Assembly: GCA_030951095.1 (NCBI GenBank)
Contig: JAUZQI010000174.1
Location: forward strand, 1 to 15,345
Direction of reading: 5' to 3'
Length of the DNA stretch: 15,345 bases
Source: Mariprofundus sp.
Lineage (GTDB): Bacteria; Pseudomonadota; Zetaproteobacteria; Mariprofundales; Mariprofundaceae
Shown: piece by piece, positions 2,914-11,431 of the stretch
Numbering within the stretch: the stretch's first letter is position 1
Layout of the letters: every line of letters starts with the position of its first letter
Program-made: the position numbers and the translations under genes
Notes under the pieces: model-generated
What the model saw: the letters and a program-made list of their open reading frames with translations, nothing else
Told to the model about the DNA's origin: nothing
Databases searched by the model: none

Positions 2914-2924
2914 TACCGCAAAGG
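2914..2924 (+). repeat. left arm of a CCGCAAAGG-type inverted repeat
   Basis: TACCGCAAAGG at 2914-2924 is followed directly by the related TACGCAAAGG at 2925-2934. The reverse complement of the 11-bp unit occurs at 3160-3170 (CCTTTGCGGTA). Together they bracket the MITE-like element. I recall similar CCGCAAAGG intergenic repeats from other bacteria, but cannot verify that here. Confidence 0.55.
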
Positions 2925-2984
2925 TACGCAAAGGTAATTTGTAACAGGATTTGAATGATGTGTTCGAATATACTGTGGGCTCAA

Positions 2985-3136
2985 GAGCCACTTGCAAAAG
3001 TCGTGAATGACGATTTACTTTCCCACTCCGACGGACTGCAAACTGGAGTTTTGGAGAATGGCATCACCAGGCCCCTCATTCCATTCCAAAAATTCACTCG
3101 AAGTGGGGTTGCAACTCAGACTTTTGCAAGTGGCTC
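2985..3136. mobile_element. MITE-like element, copy 1 (152 bp)
   Basis: The element begins with GAGCCACTTGCAAAAGTC and ends with its exact reverse complement, an 18-bp perfect terminal inverted repeat. The 4-bp direct repeat TCAA flanks it on both sides (2981-2984 and 3137-3140), as expected for a target-site duplication. The interior is partly self-complementary: CCCACT(C/T)CGA occurs subterminally on both sides, and TTTTGGA..AATGG faces CCATTCCAAAA around the middle, so the RNA or single strand could fold into a long imperfect hairpin. It has no room for a transposase and must have been mobilised in trans. A diverged copy lies at 9643-9803. It is inserted between acyP and hemH. The transposase family is not identified. 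Confidence 0.85.
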
Positions 3137-3159
3137 TCAAGAAAGCCCTTTATTGTCTT

Positions 3160-3170
3160 CCTTTGCGGTA
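3160..3170 (-). repeat. right arm of the CCGCAAAGG-type inverted repeat
   Basis: CCTTTGCGGTA is the reverse complement of 2914-2924. Without the 152-bp element and one TSD copy the arms would be about 80 bases apart. The arm runs into an A+T-rich TATAAAAT (3169-3176) just upstream of hemH, which may be a -10 region, but no well-spaced -35 was found. Confidence 0.5.
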
Positions 3171-3193
3171 TAAAATGTTTTTTTGGAGATTGA

Positions 3194-4210
3194 ATGGATT
3201 TTAGCGCAAAATGGGATTTTGATCATGAACATCCTGTCAGCACAGGTGTTTTGCTGACCAATCTGGGTACGCCGGAAGCGCCGACCAAATCCGCTTTGCG
3301 CACCTACCTGAAAGAATTTCTGTGGGATCCTCGCGTGGTGGAACAACCGCGCTGGCTGTGGTGGCTTATTCTCAATGGTGTGATTCTTAATACGCGCCCG
3401 GCCAAATCGGCAGCATTGTATCAGTCCGCTTGGACAGAACAGGGTTCTCCATTGCTCGCTACCGGAAAAAAACAACGCCATGCATTGCAACAGTCACTGC
3501 GCGAATCAATGGGTGAGGCCGTGCATGTGGAACTGGCCATGCGTTACGGTAATCCGTCTATCCAAACGGGGCTGGACGCCCTGCGCGAAAAGAATTGCAG
3601 AAAAATCGTCATCCTGCCGCTGTATCCGCAATATTCGGCGACTACAACCGGCTCTACATTCGATGCCGTTGCCGATGTGTTGAAAACATGGCGTCGTGTT
3701 CCGGAACTGCATTTGATTGACGCCTATCATCAACATCCCGCCTATATCTCAGCATTGGCCGATAGCGTTCGAATGCATTGGGCCGAGCATGGCGAGCCTG
3801 AGCGTTTACTGATGAGTTTTCACGGTATCCCCGAACGTTATTTCAAGTCGGGCGACCCGTATCCATGCCAGTGCCGAAGCACAGCACGGTTATTGCGCGA
3901 GGAACTCGGGCTGGATGAAGAAAGGGCGCAGGTATCGTTTCAGTCGCGTTTTGGTAAAGAACCGTGGGTACAGCCCTATACCGATGAAACCTTGAAAGTA
4001 TGGGGCAAAGATGGCGTGAAATCCGTCGATGTCATCTGCCCCGGATTCGCCGCCGACTGTCTGGAAACGCTGGAAGAAATCGGCATCGAAAACCGCGATT
4101 ATTTTCTCTCTGCCGGAGGTGAACAATATCGCTATATCCCCGCTCTGAATGATAGCGCAGCCCATATCTTCGCGCTAAAACAGCTTATTTTAGCGTGCAT
4201 TAAGAATTAA
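3194..4210 (+). CDS. hemH: ferrochelatase
   Basis: Inserts Fe2+ into protoporphyrin IX to make protoheme, the last step of the classical heme pathway. The 338 residues are typical for the proteobacterial family. Recognisable parts are LLTNLGTPEAPT near the N-terminus, WDPRVVEQPRWLWW, the LPLYPQYSATTTGS substrate-cleft segment, SFHGIP with the metal-binding H210, and DCLETLEE with E291. H210 and E291 keep the spacing of the His/Glu pair of known ferrochelatases. GDPYPCQC is followed by the usual QSRFG(K)EPW segment. ATG 3194 is preceded by GGAG at 3184-3187. It is expressed from its own region downstream of MITE copy 1, so the element may influence its transcription. Confidence 0.96.
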   Translation: MDFSAKWDFDHEHPVSTGVLLTNLGTPEAPTKSALRTYLKEFLWDPRVVEQPRWLWWLILNGVILNTRPAKSAALYQSAWTEQGSPLLATGKKQRHALQQSLRESMGEAVHVELAMRYGNPSIQTGLDALREKNCRKIVILPLYPQYSATTTGSTFDAVADVLKTWRRVPELHLIDAYHQHPAYISALADSVRMHWAEHGEPERLLMSFHGIPERYFKSGDPYPCQCRSTARLLREELGLDEERAQVSFQSRFGKEPWVQPYTDETLKVWGKDGVKSVDVICPGFAADCLETLEEIGIENRDYFLSAGGEQYRYIPALNDSAAHIFALKQLILACIKN

Positions 4211-4254
4211 GAATAGTGAAGTGAGAAAGCCTTGTTCTTCACCTTTCTCTATTC
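4211..4254. repeat. imperfect inverted repeat between hemH and cstA
   Basis: GAATAG (4211-4216) and AGAAAG (4224-4229) can pair with CTTTCT (4243-4248) and CTATTC (4249-4254), leaving a 7-base bulge on the left arm. There is no T tract after it, so it is not a standard intrinsic terminator; it may be an RNA hairpin at the hemH 3' end or chance. Confidence 0.3.
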
Positions 4255-4306
4255 ACAATTTCCACGCCCCCTTCGCTGCTCACAAACACATCTACAGGAG
4301 AAATAA

Positions 4307-6001
4307 ATGAGCCCAGTCGTTATGGCAATCACAGTGCTTTGTTTCTACATGCTGTTTTATCGTTTTTATGCCAAGGGAGTGCTGGCTAAAAAAATCTTTG
4401 AACTGGACGATAGCGATCCGACTCCGGCGCATACCATGCGCGATGATGTCGACTATATCCCGACCAATAAATATGTGCTGTTTGGCCATCATTTCGCTTC
4501 CATTGCCGGCCTTGCGCCGATGCTGGGGCCTGCCATTGCAGTGATTTGGGGTTGGGTTCCTGCGCTATGCTGGGTTGTGTTTGGAACCCTTCTGGTTGGC
4601 GCCGTGCATGATTTTTCGGCGCTGGTGCTCTCGATTCGCCATAAAGGCCAAAGTGTCGGCACAATTGCCCGCGATGTTATCAGCCCGCGAACACGATTAT
4701 TATTTCTGCTGGTAATTTTCTTCCTCGTTGCACTTGCCATGGGCGTATTCGTATTGGTGATTTCCGGACTGTTTGCCGCCCCTGATGCGGCCAATATTCC
4801 TGCTACGGCGCATCCGGAAGCGGTATTTCCGACCTATTCGCTGATGCTGATTGCCATGGTGATCGGATTTTTGGTTTATAAGAAGAACATGCCATTGTGG
4901 CCCATGATCGGCGTGGGGTTTGTGCTGATGCTGATTACCACCCGCATCGGTCTGGACATGCCGGTGACCGGATTTTCCGCCGGCGACTGGACATGGTCGC
5001 TGTTGATTTACGCCTTTATCGCCAGCGTGCTGCCTGTCTGGTTACTGCTACAACCGCGTGATTTTCTCAATTCGCTGTTATTGTATCTGGCTCTATTCTC
5101 CATGCTGGCCGGATTCTTCATCCTGTCCCCGGACTGGGTTGCGCCTGCCATTAACCCGAATCCGGTTGGCGCACCACCGATGATGCCCTTTCTGTTCATT
5201 GTCATCGCCTGCGGTGCGGTTTCCGGTTTCCACGGCTTAGTCGCATCGGGCACAACCTCGAAACAATTAAGTCGGGAAAGCGATGCACCATTTGTCGGTT
5301 ATGTCGGCATGGTAGGCGAATCATTGCTGGCCTTATTGGCAGTGTTGGCCACCACTGCGGGAGCGTTTGCCACACGGGCCGATTGGGAAGCCTTCTACGG
5401 ATCATGGGACAAAGCCGCCGGCCTGCATCAAAAACTCGGCGTATTTATTCAGGGCAATGCCAACTTCATTCATCAGCTCGGGATTCCGCTGGATTATGCT
5501 GCTGCATTTATTTCGGTGGTCGTGGTCGGTTTTGCCATGACCTCGGTGGATACCGGTGCGCGGTTGCTACGTTTTAATCTGGAAGAAATCGGCCAGACCC
5601 TTGGTGTTAAAATATTGGGCAATCGTTATGTAGCGACAGCTTTGGCGGTGGCTGCAATTGGATTCTTTGCCTTTTTCAAAATGGACGGCAAACCCGCCGG
5701 CTTATTTTTATGGACGTTATTCGGCACTACCAATCAGATTTTGGCCGGGCTGACCCTGCTCACTGTGACAATCTATCTGTATCGTAAAAAGAAACCGATT
5801 CTGTACACCTTGTTGCCTATGCTACTGGTGCTCGGTGCCACCATTTCCGGCATGGTCATGGGTATCGTCAAAGCCATCGGCAAGGATCAGTGGACGGTTG
5901 CAGCCGTTGGCGCAGTGATTTTCATATTGGCAGGATGGGTGTTGGTCGAAGCTCTGATTGTGGTCAAAAAAGTAAGAGCTGAAAGAGCAGGTACCAAGTA
6001 A
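4307..6001 (+). CDS. cstA: CstA-family carbon starvation protein / peptide or pyruvate transporter
   Basis: A 564-residue, highly hydrophobic inner-membrane protein. The N-terminal region with DDVDYIPTNKYVLFGHHF followed by LAPMLGPAIAVIWGW is the hallmark of the CstA family (PF02554). GAVHDFSALVLSIRHKGQS and SGFHGLVASGTTSKQL are further family blocks. Many membrane spans continue to a basic C-terminus. It is shorter than E. coli CstA (701 residues) and BtsT (716), as in the short form common in other bacteria. E. coli members are linked to peptide uptake and pyruvate uptake, so the substrate here is undecided. AGGAG at 4296-4300 is well placed for ATG 4307. No two-component regulator such as BtsSR is adjacent. 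Confidence 0.93.
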   Translation: MSPVVMAITVLCFYMLFYRFYAKGVLAKKIFELDDSDPTPAHTMRDDVDYIPTNKYVLFGHHFASIAGLAPMLGPAIAVIWGWVPALCWVVFGTLLVGAVHDFSALVLSIRHKGQSVGTIARDVISPRTRLLFLLVIFFLVALAMGVFVLVISGLFAAPDAANIPATAHPEAVFPTYSLMLIAMVIGFLVYKKNMPLWPMIGVGFVLMLITTRIGLDMPVTGFSAGDWTWSLLIYAFIASVLPVWLLLQPRDFLNSLLLYLALFSMLAGFFILSPDWVAPAINPNPVGAPPMMPFLFIVIACGAVSGFHGLVASGTTSKQLSRESDAPFVGYVGMVGESLLALLAVLATTAGAFATRADWEAFYGSWDKAAGLHQKLGVFIQGNANFIHQLGIPLDYAAAFISVVVVGFAMTSVDTGARLLRFNLEEIGQTLGVKILGNRYVATALAVAAIGFFAFFKMDGKPAGLFLWTLFGTTNQILAGLTLLTVTIYLYRKKKPILYTLLPMLLVLGATISGMVMGIVKAIGKDQWTVAAVGAVIFILAGWVLVEALIVVKKVRAERAGTK

Positions 6002-6051
6002 TACGGTGCCAACAGCGTATCCACATGATGTTTCCGGCGGGTGCAAAATAA

Positions 6052-9000
6052 ATGCGCCAGCGGTATGCTCGCGGGATGCGTTTCGCTCCATTTGTTCATC
6101 TTCACAACCACTCGGATTTCTCCCTGCTAGGGGCAAGCACGTTAGTCGATAGCCTGCTCAAAAGGGCGGTCGAGCTTAAGCAGCCAGCGGTGGCACTAAC
6201 TGATTATGGCAACCTGTTCGGAGCTATCGAGTTTTATAGCAAAGCCATGCGCATGGGTATCAAGCCGATTTTGGGCTGTGAAATCTATCTCTGCGATGAC
6301 CACACCAAACGTGTGTCCGAAGGACCGAGAGGACCAAAATTTCAGCAGCTCGTGCTGCTGGCCCGCAATAATCACGGCTGGAAAAACCTGATAAAGCTGA
6401 TTTCCATCTCTTATCTGGACGGTTTCTACTATAAACCGCGAGTTGGAAAACCATTGTTGGCCGAGCATAGCGATGGTTTGATTGCACTCTCATCCGGCTG
6501 GAATGGTGAAGTGGAGCAACTGCTGCAAAAAGGAGACAGACCAGGGGCCAGACAGGCAGCACTGGCTTACAAACAGATGTTTCACGACAACTGTTTCTTC
6601 CTTGAGTTGCAACGCCATGGTGCAGTCGGGCAGGAAGATATGAACAGGCAACTGATTGCGTTGGCGCATGAACTCGACATCCCGCTGGTAGCCAGTAACA
6701 ACTCTCATTTTCTGTCTCGCGAAGATTTTCAGGCATTTGAGGCCATGATTGCCCTGCAACAAAACCGCAAATTGAACGATGAGGTGTCAGGTTTTTTTAC
6801 ACCGGAATATTATCTGAAATCGTATGAAGAAATGACCGAATTATTTGAAGATATCCCCGAAGCGCTGGAAAACAGCATGCATATCGCAAATCGCTGCAAT
6901 GTGGATCTGCAATTCGGCCACTACCAGTTGCCGGATTTTCAGCCACCGGTGGATATGGAGTTGAGCGCTTATATGCGCCTGCAGTCCCGTGAAGGGCTGG
7001 ATGCCCGTTGGCCTGCTATTGTTGCCGGCAGCCCCGATGCTGATCGACAGGTCTATGATGACCGTCTGGCCTTTGAGTTGGATATTATTGAAAAAATGAA
7101 GTTTCCCGGTTATTTCCTGATCGTCTCGGATTTCATTACATGGTCGAAAAATCAGGGCATTCCAGTCGGCCCTGGCCGTGGCTCCGGTGCCGGATCTCTG
7201 GTTGCTTACTGCCTGAAAATAACCGACCTTGACCCAATCAAGTATGGCCTGCTGTTTGAGCGCTTTCTCAATCCGGAACGCGTTTCCATGCCGGACTTTG
7301 ATATCGATTTCTGCATGAGCCGCCGTGAAGAAGCAATTCGCTATGTCACCAACAAATACGGTGAGGATAAAGTATCCCAGATTATCACTTTCGGTTCGAT
7401 GAAGGCCAAGGCGGTGATCCGCGATGTTGGCCGGGTACTGGACATGGAACTGGCCAAGGTCAATACCATTGCCAAGCTGGTTCCAAACAATCTGAACATG
7501 ACGCTAGAAAAAGCACTGGTGGAAGAACCCAAACTGACCAAAATGATAGAACAGGATGATGAGGTTGCGCGTCTGTTTGATCTGGCCAGAAGGCTGGAAG
7601 GCTGCCACCGTAATGCCGGCAAACATGCTGCCGGCGTGATTATCAGCCGTGAACCGTTGACCGAAACAGCGCCGCTATTCAAGGTCGCCGGCGAAGAAGG
7701 AAAAGTGGTGCAGTGGGATATGGCCAATGTCGAAAAAGTTGGCCTGATAAAGTTCGACTTTCTGGGGCTGAAAACGCTCACTGTCATTGATATCGCCTGC
7801 AAGCTGCTCAAGCAGTACGACCCTCGCCCCGCAGCACAACATTTTGATATTACCACCATTCCAATGGACGATGCTGCCACCTTCAAACTGATGCAGCGTG
7901 GTCAAACCGGTGCTGTATTTCAGGTGGAATCCTCCGGTATGCGTGATCTGCTTACCCGTCTGCGCCCCGATTGTTTTGAGGATATTATTGCACTGGTGGC
8001 ACTGTATCGACCCGGGCCTCTCGAGTCAGGCATGGTAGATACATATATCGAATGCAAACACGGTCGCCAGGAAATTGTGTATCCGCTGCCACAGCTGAAA
8101 CCGATTCTGCAGGAAACCAATGGCGTGATTCTGTATCAGGAACAAGTGATGCAGATTGCCCAGGTACTTGCAGGTTTTACTCTCGGACAGGCTGATATGC
8201 TGCGCCGTGCCATGGGCAAGAAAAAACCGGAAGAGATGGCCATTCAACGTAAAATTTTCATGGCCGGTGCCGAACAACAGAAGATCAACCTCGACAAAGC
8301 CGAACAAATTTTCGATCTGATGGAGAAATTCGCCGGTTACGGTTTCAACAAATCCCATTCGGCTGCCTACGCGCTGATATCTTATCAAACCGCCTATCTC
8401 AAAGCCCATTTCCCGCATGCTTTCATGGCCGCCACGCTTTCCTGCGATATGGGTAATACCGACAAGATAGCCATTCTTGTAACAGACTGCCGTAATATGG
8501 GTATCGAGATTTTGCCGCCGCATATCAATGCATCGGACTGGGAATTCCGACCGGAAAATGATGCGATTCGTTATGGTTTGGGAGCCATCAAAGGCGTTGG
8601 AGAAGCGGCAGTTCGGGCTGTTGTTGCTGAACGCAAAAGCAACGGCACGTTTGCCAGCTTTGAAGATTTAATGATGCGCAGCCCCGCCCGCACACTCAAT
8701 AAACGCATTATGGAAGCGCTGATCAAGTCAGGCGCATTGAATGAGCTTATTCCACACCAGCAGGCAGCCCTTGAAGGACTTTCCGATACCCTTGAACAAC
8801 TAAATCGTACACGTAAGGAGTTTACTTCCAACCAGTCCGCCCTGTTTGAGCTGGCTGAACCCGAAAGTCATCAGAATTTTCCGCTGATCCAGGTGTGGAG
8901 TCCCGGAGAATGTTTGCAAGCCGAACGCGAAGTGCTGGGCTTCTATCTGACCGGACATCCGCTGGAAGCATATCTGAATTTATCCAGTGGACTGGGCAAC

Positions 9001-9570
9001 TGCAATTTAAGTCAGCTGGCTAATCGCCAAGATGGCGATCAGGTTGTTATTCCAATCGGTATTTCCAGTATCCGCCAGTATCACGGCGGTCGCGGCACCA
9101 TGGCGTTTATTCAACTGGAGGATTTGCACGGACAAGCGGAGATGGTCTGTTTTGCCAAACTATACAACGAGCACTCAGATTTGCTGGCGGCTGATCAACC
9201 ACTGCTGGTGGCGGCCCGGGTGGATAAATCCAGAGGGGATGAACCGACACTGGTGGCCGAAGCGATTGCACCGCTTGACTCTATCCTGCCGGAGCTGGTG
9301 ACCGAAATTCAAATTTCTGCCGCCAGCATTGCCTGGGATGAGGTGACCCTGGCACGTCTGAAAAGCACGGCCACGGGAGGTAAGGCACGGCTATCGTTCC
9401 ATGTACGCCTGCCTGACGCTAGTCTTGCGATTCTGGCAACCGGCCCGTGTATCGAATGGTCTGATCATATCAAAGCGCAACTGGAAGCGCGTTTTGGAAC
9501 AGAGGCGATACATATTCGCTGTAAATCGTGGCAACCACCCCGTAAACAACAGATTCGGCGGGGTAGTTGA
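6052..9570 (+). CDS. dnaE: DNA polymerase III subunit alpha
   Basis: The replicative polymerase subunit, 1172 residues (E. coli 1160). Order of parts: PHP domain from HLHNHSDFS near residue 16; polymerase core with PVGPGRGSGAGSLVAY; catalytic D415 and D417 in PDFDIDF and D569 in IKFDFLG, keeping the E. coli 401/403/555 spacing; fingers with GQADMLRRAMGKKK; helix-hairpin-helix IKGVGEAAV; a beta-clamp binding motif QSALF at 928-932, matching the E. coli QADMF position; and an OB fold near VIPIGISSIRQ. The PHP domain has TDY, SNNSHF and AFEAM where metal-binding forms usually have TDH, TNDVHY and AH, so it is probably inactive as in E. coli. ATG 6076 (MRFAPFVHL) is an alternative start that fits family N-termini; ATG 6052 has a slightly better purine-rich leader. 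accA follows. Confidence 0.96.
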   Translation: MRQRYARGMRFAPFVHLHNHSDFSLLGASTLVDSLLKRAVELKQPAVALTDYGNLFGAIEFYSKAMRMGIKPILGCEIYLCDDHTKRVSEGPRGPKFQQLVLLARNNHGWKNLIKLISISYLDGFYYKPRVGKPLLAEHSDGLIALSSGWNGEVEQLLQKGDRPGARQAALAYKQMFHDNCFFLELQRHGAVGQEDMNRQLIALAHELDIPLVASNNSHFLSREDFQAFEAMIALQQNRKLNDEVSGFFTPEYYLKSYEEMTELFEDIPEALENSMHIANRCNVDLQFGHYQLPDFQPPVDMELSAYMRLQSREGLDARWPAIVAGSPDADRQVYDDRLAFELDIIEKMKFPGYFLIVSDFITWSKNQGIPVGPGRGSGAGSLVAYCLKITDLDPIKYGLLFERFLNPERVSMPDFDIDFCMSRREEAIRYVTNKYGEDKVSQIITFGSMKAKAVIRDVGRVLDMELAKVNTIAKLVPNNLNMTLEKALVEEPKLTKMIEQDDEVARLFDLARRLEGCHRNAGKHAAGVIISREPLTETAPLFKVAGEEGKVVQWDMANVEKVGLIKFDFLGLKTLTVIDIACKLLKQYDPRPAAQHFDITTIPMDDAATFKLMQRGQTGAVFQVESSGMRDLLTRLRPDCFEDIIALVALYRPGPLESGMVDTYIECKHGRQEIVYPLPQLKPILQETNGVILYQEQVMQIAQVLAGFTLGQADMLRRAMGKKKPEEMAIQRKIFMAGAEQQKINLDKAEQIFDLMEKFAGYGFNKSHSAAYALISYQTAYLKAHFPHAFMAATLSCDMGNTDKIAILVTDCRNMGIEILPPHINASDWEFRPENDAIRYGLGAIKGVGEAAVRAVVAERKSNGTFASFEDLMMRSPARTLNKRIMEALIKSGALNELIPHQQAALEGLSDTLEQLNRTRKEFTSNQSALFELAEPESHQNFPLIQVWSPGECLQAEREVLGFYLTGHPLEAYLNLSSGLGNCNLSQLANRQDGDQVVIPIGISSIRQYHGGRGTMAFIQLEDLHGQAEMVCFAKLYNEHSDLLAADQPLLVAARVDKSRGDEPTLVAEAIAPLDSILPELVTEIQISAASIAWDEVTLARLKSTATGGKARLSFHVRLPDASLAILATGPCIEWSDHIKAQLEARFGTEAIHIRCKSWQPPRKQQIRRGS

Positions 9571-9642
9571 TGGCGGCAAGCCTTATTCACGATGAAGCGT
9601 GATTCCATTTATTGGGAGCACCAATTGCTTGATATGACAGAG

Positions 9643-9803
9643 GAGCCACTTGCAAAAGTCGTGAACGGCGATTTACTTCCCCACTCCGGCGCATTATCGA
9701 ACTGGAATTTCAGAGAATGGAACCACCATGCTCCTCATTCCATTCCAAAAATGCACTCGACGTGGGATTGCAACTCATCCACTCAGACTTTTGCAAGTGG
9801 CTC
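9643..9803. mobile_element. MITE-like element, copy 2 (161 bp)
   Basis: It has the same 18-bp perfect terminal inverted repeats as copy 1 (GAGCCACTTGCAAAAGTC and its reverse complement), in the same orientation relative to the genome. It is flanked by a different 4-bp direct repeat, AGAG, at 9639-9642 and 9804-9807. The body is diverged from copy 1, with many scattered substitutions in the middle third. It is 9 bp longer, mainly from an 8-bp TCCACTCA duplication next to the right terminus (about 9778-9785). There is no coding capacity. It separates dnaE from accA and its right end abuts the accA ribosome-binding site. Confidence 0.86.
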
Positions 9804-9812
9804 AGAGGAGAG
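9804..9812 (+). promoter_or_regulatory. accA ribosome-binding site rebuilt by the element's target duplication
   Basis: AGAGGAGAG is a strong Shine-Dalgarno sequence placed about 6-8 nt before GTG 9819. Its first four bases are the right copy of the AGAG duplication. The left copy followed by the element's first bases GAG also reads AGAGGAG (9639-9645). This site decides in favour of GTG 9819 as the accA start. Confidence 0.75.
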
Positions 9813-9818
9813 ATAATA

Positions 9819-10778
9819 GTGGCATATAGTTACCTTGAATTTGAACGTCCAATTGCTGAACTGACATCAAAAATTGAAGATCTGTCAAGTATGGGATCCG
9901 GCTCCGGTGTCAATATTGCCGAGGAAGTCGAGCGTCTGAGTGCCAAGCGCGATAAACTGATCGAGCAGACTTACAGCAATGCAAGCCGAGCCCAGATTTG
10001 TCAGTTGTCGCGCCATCCGGATCGCCCCTATATTGTCGATTACATTCCGCAATTATTTGATGATTTTCAGGAACTGCACGGTGACCGCGCCTTTTTCGAT
10101 GATGCTGCCATCGTCGGAGGCATTGCAAATTTTCGCGGCAAAAGCGCCGTTATTGTCGGCCATCAGAAAGGCCGGGATACCAAAGAAAAACTGAAACGTA
10201 ATTTTGGCATGCCTCGACCCGAGGGTTACCGTAAGGCGTTGCGCCTGTTTAAGCTGGCTGAACGTTTTGAAATGCCTGTGCTGACATTTATCGATACAGC
10301 CGGTGCATGGCCCGGCATTGATGCTGAAGAACGGGGACAGAGTGAAGCGATTGCCCGTAACCTGCAGGAACTGGCTGCGTTGAAAGTACCTGTGATCTGC
10401 ACCGTCATTGGCGAAGGTGGTTCCGGAGGCGCACTGGCTATTGGTGTCGGCGACCGCATGTTTATGCAGCAGTTTTCCACCTATTCGGTCATTTCCCCTG
10501 AAGGTTGCGCAGCAATTCTCTGGCGCGATCGGGCTTTTTCCGGCGATGCCGCAGAAGCCCTGAAACCCACAGCAACAGATTTGCAGGCGCATGGTCTGAT
10601 CGACGGGATTATCCCCGAACCCAAAGAGGGAGCACATCGCAATATTGAAGCGGCGGCCGAACTCATTGCTGAAACACTGGAGAAGGCGCTAAATGAGCTT
10701 CTTGCCCAACCCTTGGACAAACTACTGGATCAACGCGCAAAACGTTTACGCAATATAGGGGCATTTAGCACCAAATAA
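9819..10778 (+). CDS. accA: acetyl-CoA carboxylase carboxyltransferase subunit alpha
   Basis: Partner of AccD in the carboxyltransferase that moves CO2 from biotin-BCCP to acetyl-CoA, giving malonyl-CoA for fatty acid synthesis. From GTG 9819 the protein is 319 residues, exactly the E. coli length, and opens with the family N-terminus [18 protein letters not shown]. Later come [29 protein letters not shown], the core [30 protein letters not shown] with its oxyanion-hole glycines, and [15 protein letters not shown] longer in-frame ORF reaches back to 9717, but those 34 residues are translated MITE sequence and not part of the protein. The gene is followed by tRNA-Ser after 38 bases, with no terminator between them. 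Confidence 0.95.
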
Positions 10779-10816: not shown

Positions 10817-10908
10817 GGAGAGGTACTCGAAGTGGTCATAACGGCACCGACTCGAAATCGGTTGGGGGCGAAAGTCCCGCGCGGGTTCGAATCCCGCCCT
10901 CTCCGCCA
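10817..10908 (+). tRNA. tRNA-Ser (anticodon CGA)
   Basis: The acceptor arm pairs GGAGAGG at the 5' end with CCTCTCC at the 3' end, followed by discriminator G and an encoded CCA (10906-10908). The anticodon stem ACCGA/TCGGT encloses the loop CTCGAAA, giving anticodon CGA, which reads UCG serine codons. The long variable arm (GGGGGCGAAAGTCCC region) is the class II feature expected of tRNA-Ser. The T arm GCGGG-TTCGAAT-CCCGC is perfect. Confidence 0.97.
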
Positions 10909-10951
10909 TTCATCACAAAGGGCTACCCACGGGTAGCCCTTTGTGATGAAT
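10908..10951. terminator. 21-bp perfect hairpin directly after tRNA-Ser, likely transcription end or processing signal
   Basis: TTCATCACAAAGGGCTACCC (10909-10928) is followed by AC and then the exact reverse complement at 10931-10950. The last A of the tRNA CCA also pairs with T10951, so the stem reaches 21 bp around a 2-base centre. The symmetry would work for transcripts from either side. There is no T tract on the plus strand, so its role as a terminator is inferred from its place at the end of the accA-tRNA unit. Confidence 0.6.
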
Positions 10952-10983
10952 AGGCGGGATGGATGGTATGGCTTTTACCCCAC

Positions 10984-11016
10984 AAAAAAACACCCCGTCT
11001 GAAAACAGACGGGGTG
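10984..11016 (-). terminator. intrinsic terminator of the cold-shock gene
   Basis: Read on the minus strand, an 11-bp stem CACCCCGTCTG / CAGACGGGGTG with a TTTT loop is followed directly by seven T residues (complement of 10984-10990). It lies about 20 bases after the cold-shock stop codon. This is a textbook Rho-independent terminator. Confidence 0.92.
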
Positions 11017-11036
11017 CGGATTAAGCCATGGTTGGT

Positions 11037-11240
11037 TTAAGCTTCTGTGACGTTGCGAGCCTGTGGGCCTTTCTGTCCGTCTTCGATTTCGAATTCCACT
11101 TTCTGACCTTCAGCCAGAGACTTGAAGCCTTCTGTCTGAATAGCTGAAAAGTGAACGAATACATCGTCACCACCATCGTCCTGAGCAATAAAGCCAAAGC
11201 CCTTGGTGTCGTTGAACCATTTAACTGTACCTGTTGCCAT
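11037..11240 (-). CDS. cold-shock domain protein (CspA family)
   Basis: A 67-residue single-domain nucleic-acid chaperone of the CspA family. It starts [11 protein letters not shown] and has RNP1 as KGFGFI and RNP2 as VFVHF, with the usual GPQARNV C-terminus. A longer in-frame ORF begins at 11348, but the added 36 residues have no family counterpart. ATG 11240 is preceded by GAGGAA at a normal distance, so the short form is chosen. Between this start and the protease gene lie about 190 bases, which leaves room for the long 5' leader often found on cold-shock mRNAs. A strong terminator follows. Whether it is cold-induced cannot be told from sequence. Confidence 0.95.
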
Positions 11241-11431
11241 TTTTACATTCCTCGATTTATCTATTGGTATGCATGCATGTTTATTAAGATTGTTACTGGA
11301 AAAAAACGAGAAGAAACTTCCGAATCGGCCAAAAAACGCTTTCAACAACCATGTCGTGCTGGCCGCACTTTATGGCAGTGATTCACATAAATCCAGTAAA
11401 ACAATCATGCACATGTTCAATGACGCCCTTC

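What the first reader, a model, noticed from the sequence alone, without database searches (positions are those of the whole stretch)
2985..9803. Two-copy MITE-like family with 18-bp perfect terminal inverted repeats and 4-bp target duplications
Copies at 2985-3136 (152 bp) and 9643-9803 (161 bp) share identical 18-bp termini. Each is bordered by its own 4-bp direct repeat (TCAA versus AGAG), and the interiors are clearly diverged and partly fold-back. Perfect ends with a drifting middle is the pattern expected when a transposase in trans selects only the ends. No transposase is present, so the parent element must lie elsewhere or be lost. I do not recognise the family name.
Basis: seen in the sequence. 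Interest (0 to 1): 0.78.

Follow-up and report, generated by a model that had tools for sequence, protein, structure and literature searches.

The report
High-copy hairpin mini-transposon, probably of Zetaproteobacteria
The two repeats belong to a large family of tiny non-coding jumping DNA pieces, for which I found no published name, probably moved by a transposase seen in related bacteria; it is a new family of a well-known kind.

Summary
In detail: copies at 2985-3136 and 9643-9803 have perfect 18-bp ends and 4-bp duplications (TCAA, AGAG). They are not a two-copy family. The draft genome (1.65 Mb, 78% complete) holds 158 terminus sites, about 79 elements. Of 71 places examined, 63 hold full-length copies; 49 of those have a perfect 4-bp duplication. 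The accA site is empty in two close relatives.

The likely mobiliser is an IS5/IS1182-type insertion sequence with almost the same ends in same-genus genomes G010 and G017, whose flanks show the same target bias. The host draft shows only remnants. Homologous copies occur in other Mariprofundaceae and one other family; MAGs labelled Acidobacteria, Chlamydiae, Lentisphaeria and Verrucomicrobia carry the same 15-bp ends around unrelated interiors.

Representatives of eight genomes fold essentially end to end. Pairing is kept between lineages by paired changes, but rare changes within copies show no such care. Two copies have one arm rewritten as the complement of the other. So the palindrome looks maintained at DNA or mobilisation level. 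Verdict: a MITE; new family, known kind.

The parts
2985..3136 (+). MITE copy 1 (152 bp, 9 bp shorter than the consensus), acyP-hemH gap
2981..2984 (.). target duplication TCAA, left
3137..3140 (.). target duplication TCAA, right
2985..3002 (+). 18-bp terminal inverted repeat, left, copy 1
3119..3136 (-). 18-bp terminal inverted repeat, right, copy 1
9643..9803 (+). MITE copy 2 (161 bp, 1.2% from the genome consensus), dnaE-accA gap; folds end to end (-65.2 kcal/mol as RNA)
9639..9642 (.). target duplication AGAG, left
   Evidence: empty site in G018 and G004
9804..9807 (.). target duplication AGAG, right
9643..9660 (+). 18-bp terminal inverted repeat, left, copy 2
9786..9803 (-). 18-bp terminal inverted repeat, right, copy 2; 24 bp (9780-9803) are identical to IS right ends in G010

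Best explanation
These are two copies of a MITE family (consensus 161 bp, no gene). A DDE transposase of the IS5/IS1182 type, supplied in trans by an insertion sequence with the same ends, cuts the element at its ends and joins it to a 4-bp staggered target, preferring a C just outside the 4 bp on one strand or the other, AT-rich in Zetaproteobacteria and mostly between genes. Gap repair leaves the 4-bp duplications. Lineages amplified their own versions; inserted copies then decay neutrally. The whole element folds back on itself. Shown: copies, ends, duplications, empty site, IS with nearly the same ends and the same target bias, hairpin. Inferred: that this particular transposase does the moving, and that arm-to-arm DNA templating plus repeated transposition keep the hairpin.
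For: 158 terminus sites; 49 of 63 full-length copies with a perfect 4-bp duplication, 3 more with 5 bp. Empty accA site in G018 and G004. 4 of 63 reconstructed sites lie inside ORFs of 100 aa or more, against 82% of random positions in the same flanks. Same ends on an IS of the same genus: 30 sites in G010 and 40 in G017 with at most 1 mismatch; transposase of 379 aa with DDE_Tnp_1 and DUF772. Target bias: C before or G after the duplication in 47 of 49 own copies with a perfect duplication, 38 of 44 in other Zetaproteobacteria, 22 of 22 in the Acidobacteria MAG; C at the matching place in 14 of 33 IS-end flanks of G010 and G017, background 18%, p = 0.001. A 63-bp deletion form with the same junction at two loci.
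Against: No intact transposase of this kind in the host's draft genome: one 38%-identity remnant with three stops and one DDE fragment at a contig end. IS and MITE share only the ends (22-24 bp), so the MITE is no simple internal deletion of that IS. The only complete G017 IS has an imperfect duplication (GTAT/ATAT) and a left end with 4 mismatches. In G084, which has both, the IS ends (GAGGTAATTGCAAAACTC) differ at three places from the local MITE ends, and 1 of 3 elements with both ends found has a 4-bp duplication. 14 of 63 own copies lack a perfect 4-bp duplication. In 3 of 5 genomes of other phyla with the same ends no relative of the transposase was found. Movement was not observed.
Confidence: 0.87

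Rival explanations
1. The repeat is an RNA-level regulatory element: its hairpin acts in transcripts of neighbouring genes (as RNase III substrate or mRNA stabiliser) and host selection keeps it.
For: Hairpin in the eight genomes folded; 279 cells with changes on both sides that keep pairing against 95.5 (sd 7.4) in shuffles. The window copies lie in the gaps before hemH and accA. Correia elements are cut by RNase III according to a review (passages of PMC10969869).
Against: Rare stem changes within copies keep the pair no more than expected: 15 of 69 against 14.2 (sd 2.9). Orientation to flanking tandem genes is 23 against 12 of 35, not decisive. Two copies show arm rewriting, a DNA process. 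G018 and G004 lack the element altogether.
Confidence: 0.08
2. A true MITE, but moved by a different transposase family with similar ends, not by the IS of G010 and G017.
For: Most MITE-rich drafts lack a full-length relative of that transposase; only ends are shared; the G084 IS has somewhat other ends.
Against: 18/18 and 17/18 identical ends, 24 bp identical on the right, 4-bp duplications at two IS copies and the same target bias.
Confidence: 0.09
3. A vertically inherited structural repeat (REP or ERIC-like) whose flanking 4-bp repeats are accidental.
For: Mostly intergenic, palindromic, many copies.
Against: 49 of 63 perfect duplications of differing sequence; empty site; copies group mostly by host genome in a tree (support values not looked at).
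Confidence: 0.02

Closest known systems
Bacterial MITEs in general (Chunjie, QMITE2, Correia; passages of review PMC10969869 seen)
   Same: Short, no transposase gene, terminal inverted repeats, flanking direct repeats, tens of copies, mostly intergenic; QMITE2 is also drawn there as one folded transcript.
   Different: No sequence comparison with the named families was run. The held text of that review has no occurrence of Zetaproteobacteria, Mariprofundus or IS1182.
IS5/IS1182-type insertion sequences (the 100%-identical protein P0001 bears the NCBI name 'IS5/IS1182 family transposase')
   Same: DDE_Tnp_1 and DUF772 domains, element of about 1.45 kb, inverted ends, 4-bp duplication at a G084 copy and a G006 remnant.
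   Different: The transposase scores under the curated cut-off of the NCBIfam models (103.7 of 270 for IS1182, 62 of 140 for IS5_4), so the exact family is open. The MITE lacks the gene and shares only the ends.
Template-switch (quasipalindrome) correction of hairpins (PMC8794818, abstract and start of the introduction seen)
   Same: Several changes together make one arm the complement of the other (L183, L144).
   Different: That paper concerns RNA genes; here it is a mobile element. One search for quasipalindromes with MITEs listed a single paper, on a detection program.

Membership tests
MITE | Short, non-coding, terminal inverted repeats | tested here: met
   152-161 bp with 18-bp ends; too short for the 80-aa ORFs listed; shorter ORFs not tested
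MITE | Flanking target duplications of constant length | tested here: met
   perfect 4 bp in 49 of 63; perfect 5 bp in 3
MITE | Many dispersed, mainly intergenic copies | tested here: met
   158 end sites; 4 of 63 inside ORFs of 100 aa or more
MITE | Polymorphic presence (empty sites) | tested here: met
   accA gap of G018 and G004; one of the two window sites shown base-exactly
MITE | Shares ends with an autonomous element | tested here: met
   IS of G010 and G017
MITE | Moved in trans by that element's transposase | not testable with these tools
   needs a transposition assay
IS5 or IS1182 family (for the partner IS) | NCBIfam curated cut-off | tested here: not met
   IS1182 103.7 of 270; IS5_4 62 of 140
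IS5 or IS1182 family (for the partner IS) | DDE_Tnp_1 domain over Pfam cut-off | tested here: met
   57.1 bits, cut-off 23
IS5 or IS1182 family (for the partner IS) | 4-bp target duplication (value recalled, not looked up) | tested here: inconclusive
   TATG at one G084 copy, AATA at the G006 remnant; GTAT/ATAT at G017; none at two interrupted G084 elements
Correia-like regulatory MITE | Outward sigma-70 promoters in the ends (as described in PMC10969869) | tested here: inconclusive
   0 near copy 1 (chance mean 0.6); 1 weak (9 of 12) at the right end of copy 2 (chance mean 0.4)
Known Rfam RNA family | Gathering-score match | tested here: not met
   2 matches in the window, none over either copy

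The most novel reading that the evidence does not exclude
The end-to-end hairpin is not kept by a host function: one arm is now and then rewritten from the other by replication template switching, and only hairpin-shaped elements between these ends amplify. The same ends in several phyla have therefore gathered unrelated palindromic interiors by convergence, and the apparent RNA covariation is a DNA by-product.
Probability: 0.3. Interest if true: 0.55.

Novelty: new member of a known kind. Interest (0 to 1): 0.4.

Why it matters
It offers a natural experiment in one package: a MITE family in many copies, a likely transposase with the same ends, an empty site, and same-ended elements with unrelated interiors in other phyla. 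It also gives a caution: strong covariation, usually read as a sign of a functional RNA, can occur in a mobile hairpin whose individual copies show no sign of selection for pairing and in which arm rewriting is visible in two copies.

Tried and rejected
RNAalifold on the 132-copy alignment gave a poor consensus (22 pairs); the structure counted is the fold of the alignment's majority sequence, so it leans towards that sequence, and the shuffle control does not allow for relatedness. A gain/loss count of arm complementarity against nearest neighbours has no direction and told nothing (221 gains, 272 losses). Insertion into hairpin loops, which copy 1 seems to show, is no rule: 1 of 49 sites, 2.6 expected. 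Promoters and terminators: no copy-borne signal above chance. Shared insertion sites: flanks of 22 QILF copies were compared only with the fetched flanks of own copies; flanks of 4 QILF copies hit something, and no shared insertion point was shown. L247 ranked with L183 and L144 in the arm test, but both its arms differ from its neighbours, so I did not count it.

Papers. Listings only: 6 papers; 2; 153, 15 listed; 1; 21, 12 listed; 217, 8 listed; the term miniature inverted-repeat occurs in none of those 8. Zero papers: Zetaproteobacteria with MITE; 15-base terminus. Passages: PMC10969869. Abstract and start of introduction: PMC8794818. That I found no published name for the family rests only; IS and MITE sequence databases were not searched.
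Full report
What is there. Both repeats are as described. The window is contig C84 of a draft genome of 1,647,439 bases in 193 contigs, 78% complete. The host is therefore probably a member of the Mariprofundaceae (inference). The terminus occurs 158 times in the genome (81 forward, 77 reverse, up to 3 mismatches; reversed control 0 and 1), so about 79 elements, one per 21 kb.

Copies. I examined 71 places (list; DNA and the window), built from the 100 termini that one search listed and the 40 copies, so some 8 elements were not examined. Of 71 places, 63 hold full-length elements (38 of 161 bp, 19 of 160 bp, 6 of other lengths from 152 to 163 bp), 7 hold elements cut at one end (one by a contig end), and 1 holds a 63-bp form. 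A second 63-bp form lies in the flank of another copy. The two 63-bp forms have the same junction, at a CCACTC that occurs at both deletion borders; one is flanked by AGGT on both sides, the other has no 4-bp duplication. The deletion form may have moved on its own; the same deletion arising twice is not excluded. A perfect 4-bp duplication flanks 49 of 63 full-length copies and a perfect 5-bp one flanks 3 more; the remaining 11 have neither.

Mobility. AccA of G018 is 95% and of G004 94% identical to the window's. Their dnaE-accA gap aligns with the window's, after removal of the element and one AGAG, without a gap at the insertion point. The acyP-hemH gaps of G018, G004, G014 and G022 hold no copy, but they are too diverged for a base-exact empty site. 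G018 and G004 have no match to the element anywhere. Reconstructed sites avoid genes: 4 of 63 fall inside an ORF of 100 aa or more, against 82% of random positions in the same flanks (simple ORF caller).

Partner. G010 and G017, of the same genus, carry an insertion sequence with these ends: 30 and 40 sites with at most one mismatch. Nearly all of the fetched ones lie within 300 bases of a contig end, as expected when an assembly breaks at a repeated IS. The only complete copy seen (G017 C126, 1,458 bp between its ends) encodes a 379-aa DDE transposase. In G010 the left end of C107 is 17/18 and right ends of other contigs are 18/18 identical to the MITE end; 24 bp at the right are identical to window copy 2. 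Of 78 genomes of the order, 12 match the transposase somewhere, but over its full length only G017, G010 (one stop) and G084 do; the own genome has one decayed piece. Of the same 78, 20 match the MITE, of which G010, G017 and G006 match by IS ends only and some others by fragments. G084 has both; its IS ends differ at three places from its MITE ends. Most of these genomes are drafts, so absence of the IS is weak evidence.

Target rule. Just outside the 4-bp duplication there is a C on the left or a G on the right (the same thing on the other strand) in 47 of 49 own copies with a perfect duplication, about 39% being expected from nearby composition; in 38 of 44 of other Zetaproteobacteria (66 copies had full flanks); in 22 of 22 of the Acidobacteria MAG (29 with flanks; about 50% expected); and in 8 of 8 of the other phyla (9 with flanks). 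IS-end flanks of G010 and G017 show C at the matching place in 14 of 33, background 18%, p = 0.001.

Distribution. I compared the first 80 loci. The 48 zetaproteobacterial ones are 80-89% identical to window copy 2. The 32 in MAGs labelled Acidobacteria (one MAG), Chlamydiae and Waddliaceae, Lentisphaeria and Verrucomicrobia are 55-62%, that is, unrelated inside; most have 4-bp duplications. Fragments of a related transposase (41-56% identity) were found in 2 of 5 of these genomes, none in 3. MAG labels and binning were not checked.

Hairpin. As RNA, copy 2 folds end to end at -65 kcal/mol; representatives of seven other genomes give -68 to -103. On 132 copies (63 own, 69 from eight other genomes) 91.9% of pair cells are standard against 88.4% in shuffles and 35-43% when slid; 279 cells have both sides changed against 95.5 (sd 7.4). 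Consensus elements of nine genomes form 53-59 of 60 pairs. Within copies there is no such care: of 69 rare stem substitutions 15 keep the pair, with 14.2 (sd 2.9) expected from the pooled spectrum and 12.2 (sd 2.7) from unpaired sites; a first own-genome count gave 3 of 23 against 2.65. Two copies show how arms can stay matched. In L183 the four left-arm differences from its sister consensus, one an insertion, make the left arm the exact complement of the right arm, which is unchanged. In L144 the right arm differs by 11 edits (median) from its five nearest copies and the left by 1, and the right now mirrors the left. Conversion from another copy in inverted orientation would look the same. 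Interiors of unrelated same-ended elements also fold strongly in the representatives I chose: z = -6.0 (Lentisphaeria), -8.8 (Chlamydiae), -6.2 and -14.3 (Waddliaceae), -3.1 (Verrucomicrobia); but only -1.6 to -2.7 for three Acidobacteria copies, and -0.6 for window copy 1.

Reading. Best supported: a MITE family mobilised in trans by an IS5/IS1182-type transposase, amplified within lineages, with a palindrome kept at the level of the active elements. In a tree the copies group mostly by genome, but nine own copies form a second subfamily beside G014 and G070 copies. Whether the palindrome is needed for movement or merely corrected by template switching is open. Effects on hemH and accA are unknown; copy 2 ends 15 bp before the probable GTG start of accA. 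On rechecking I lowered the main confidence from 0.88 to 0.87 because two further G084 elements lack a duplication, and raised the RNA rival from 0.07 to 0.08.

Noticed in passing
window 9717-10778: An open frame starts at an ATG inside MITE copy 2 and runs in frame into accA (34 codons before the probable GTG start at 9819), so the insertion offers an alternative N-terminal extension.
   Followed up: no
window 2915-2924 and 3160-3169: Copy 1 lies between the arms of another inverted repeat (ACCGCAAAGG / CCTTTGCGGT); similar CTTTGCG or CTCTGTG motifs flank the hemH gap of G018 and G022, which have no MITE there.
   Followed up: partly
window 2977-2981 and 3144-3148: Without the element the site reads as a GGGCT/AGCCC hairpin followed by TTTATTGT, so copy 1 sits in the loop of a possible terminator; not a rule for other copies (1 of 49).
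   Followed up: yes
L110 1201-1263 and L123 368-430: Two 63-bp deletion forms with both ends and the same junction at a CCACTC repeat.
   Followed up: partly
L255 399-936: Three MITE copies lie in close succession in one contig of Mariprofundus sp. AMOR20_M1620.
   Followed up: no
G010 and G017 IS ends: Four different IS right-end sequences share the same 22 terminal bases, so several IS isoforms use these ends.
   Followed up: no
window 10817-10905, 10897-10962, 10987-11397: A tRNA gene with a strong adjoining inverted repeat, and a cspA thermoregulator match over the cold-shock gene.
   Followed up: no
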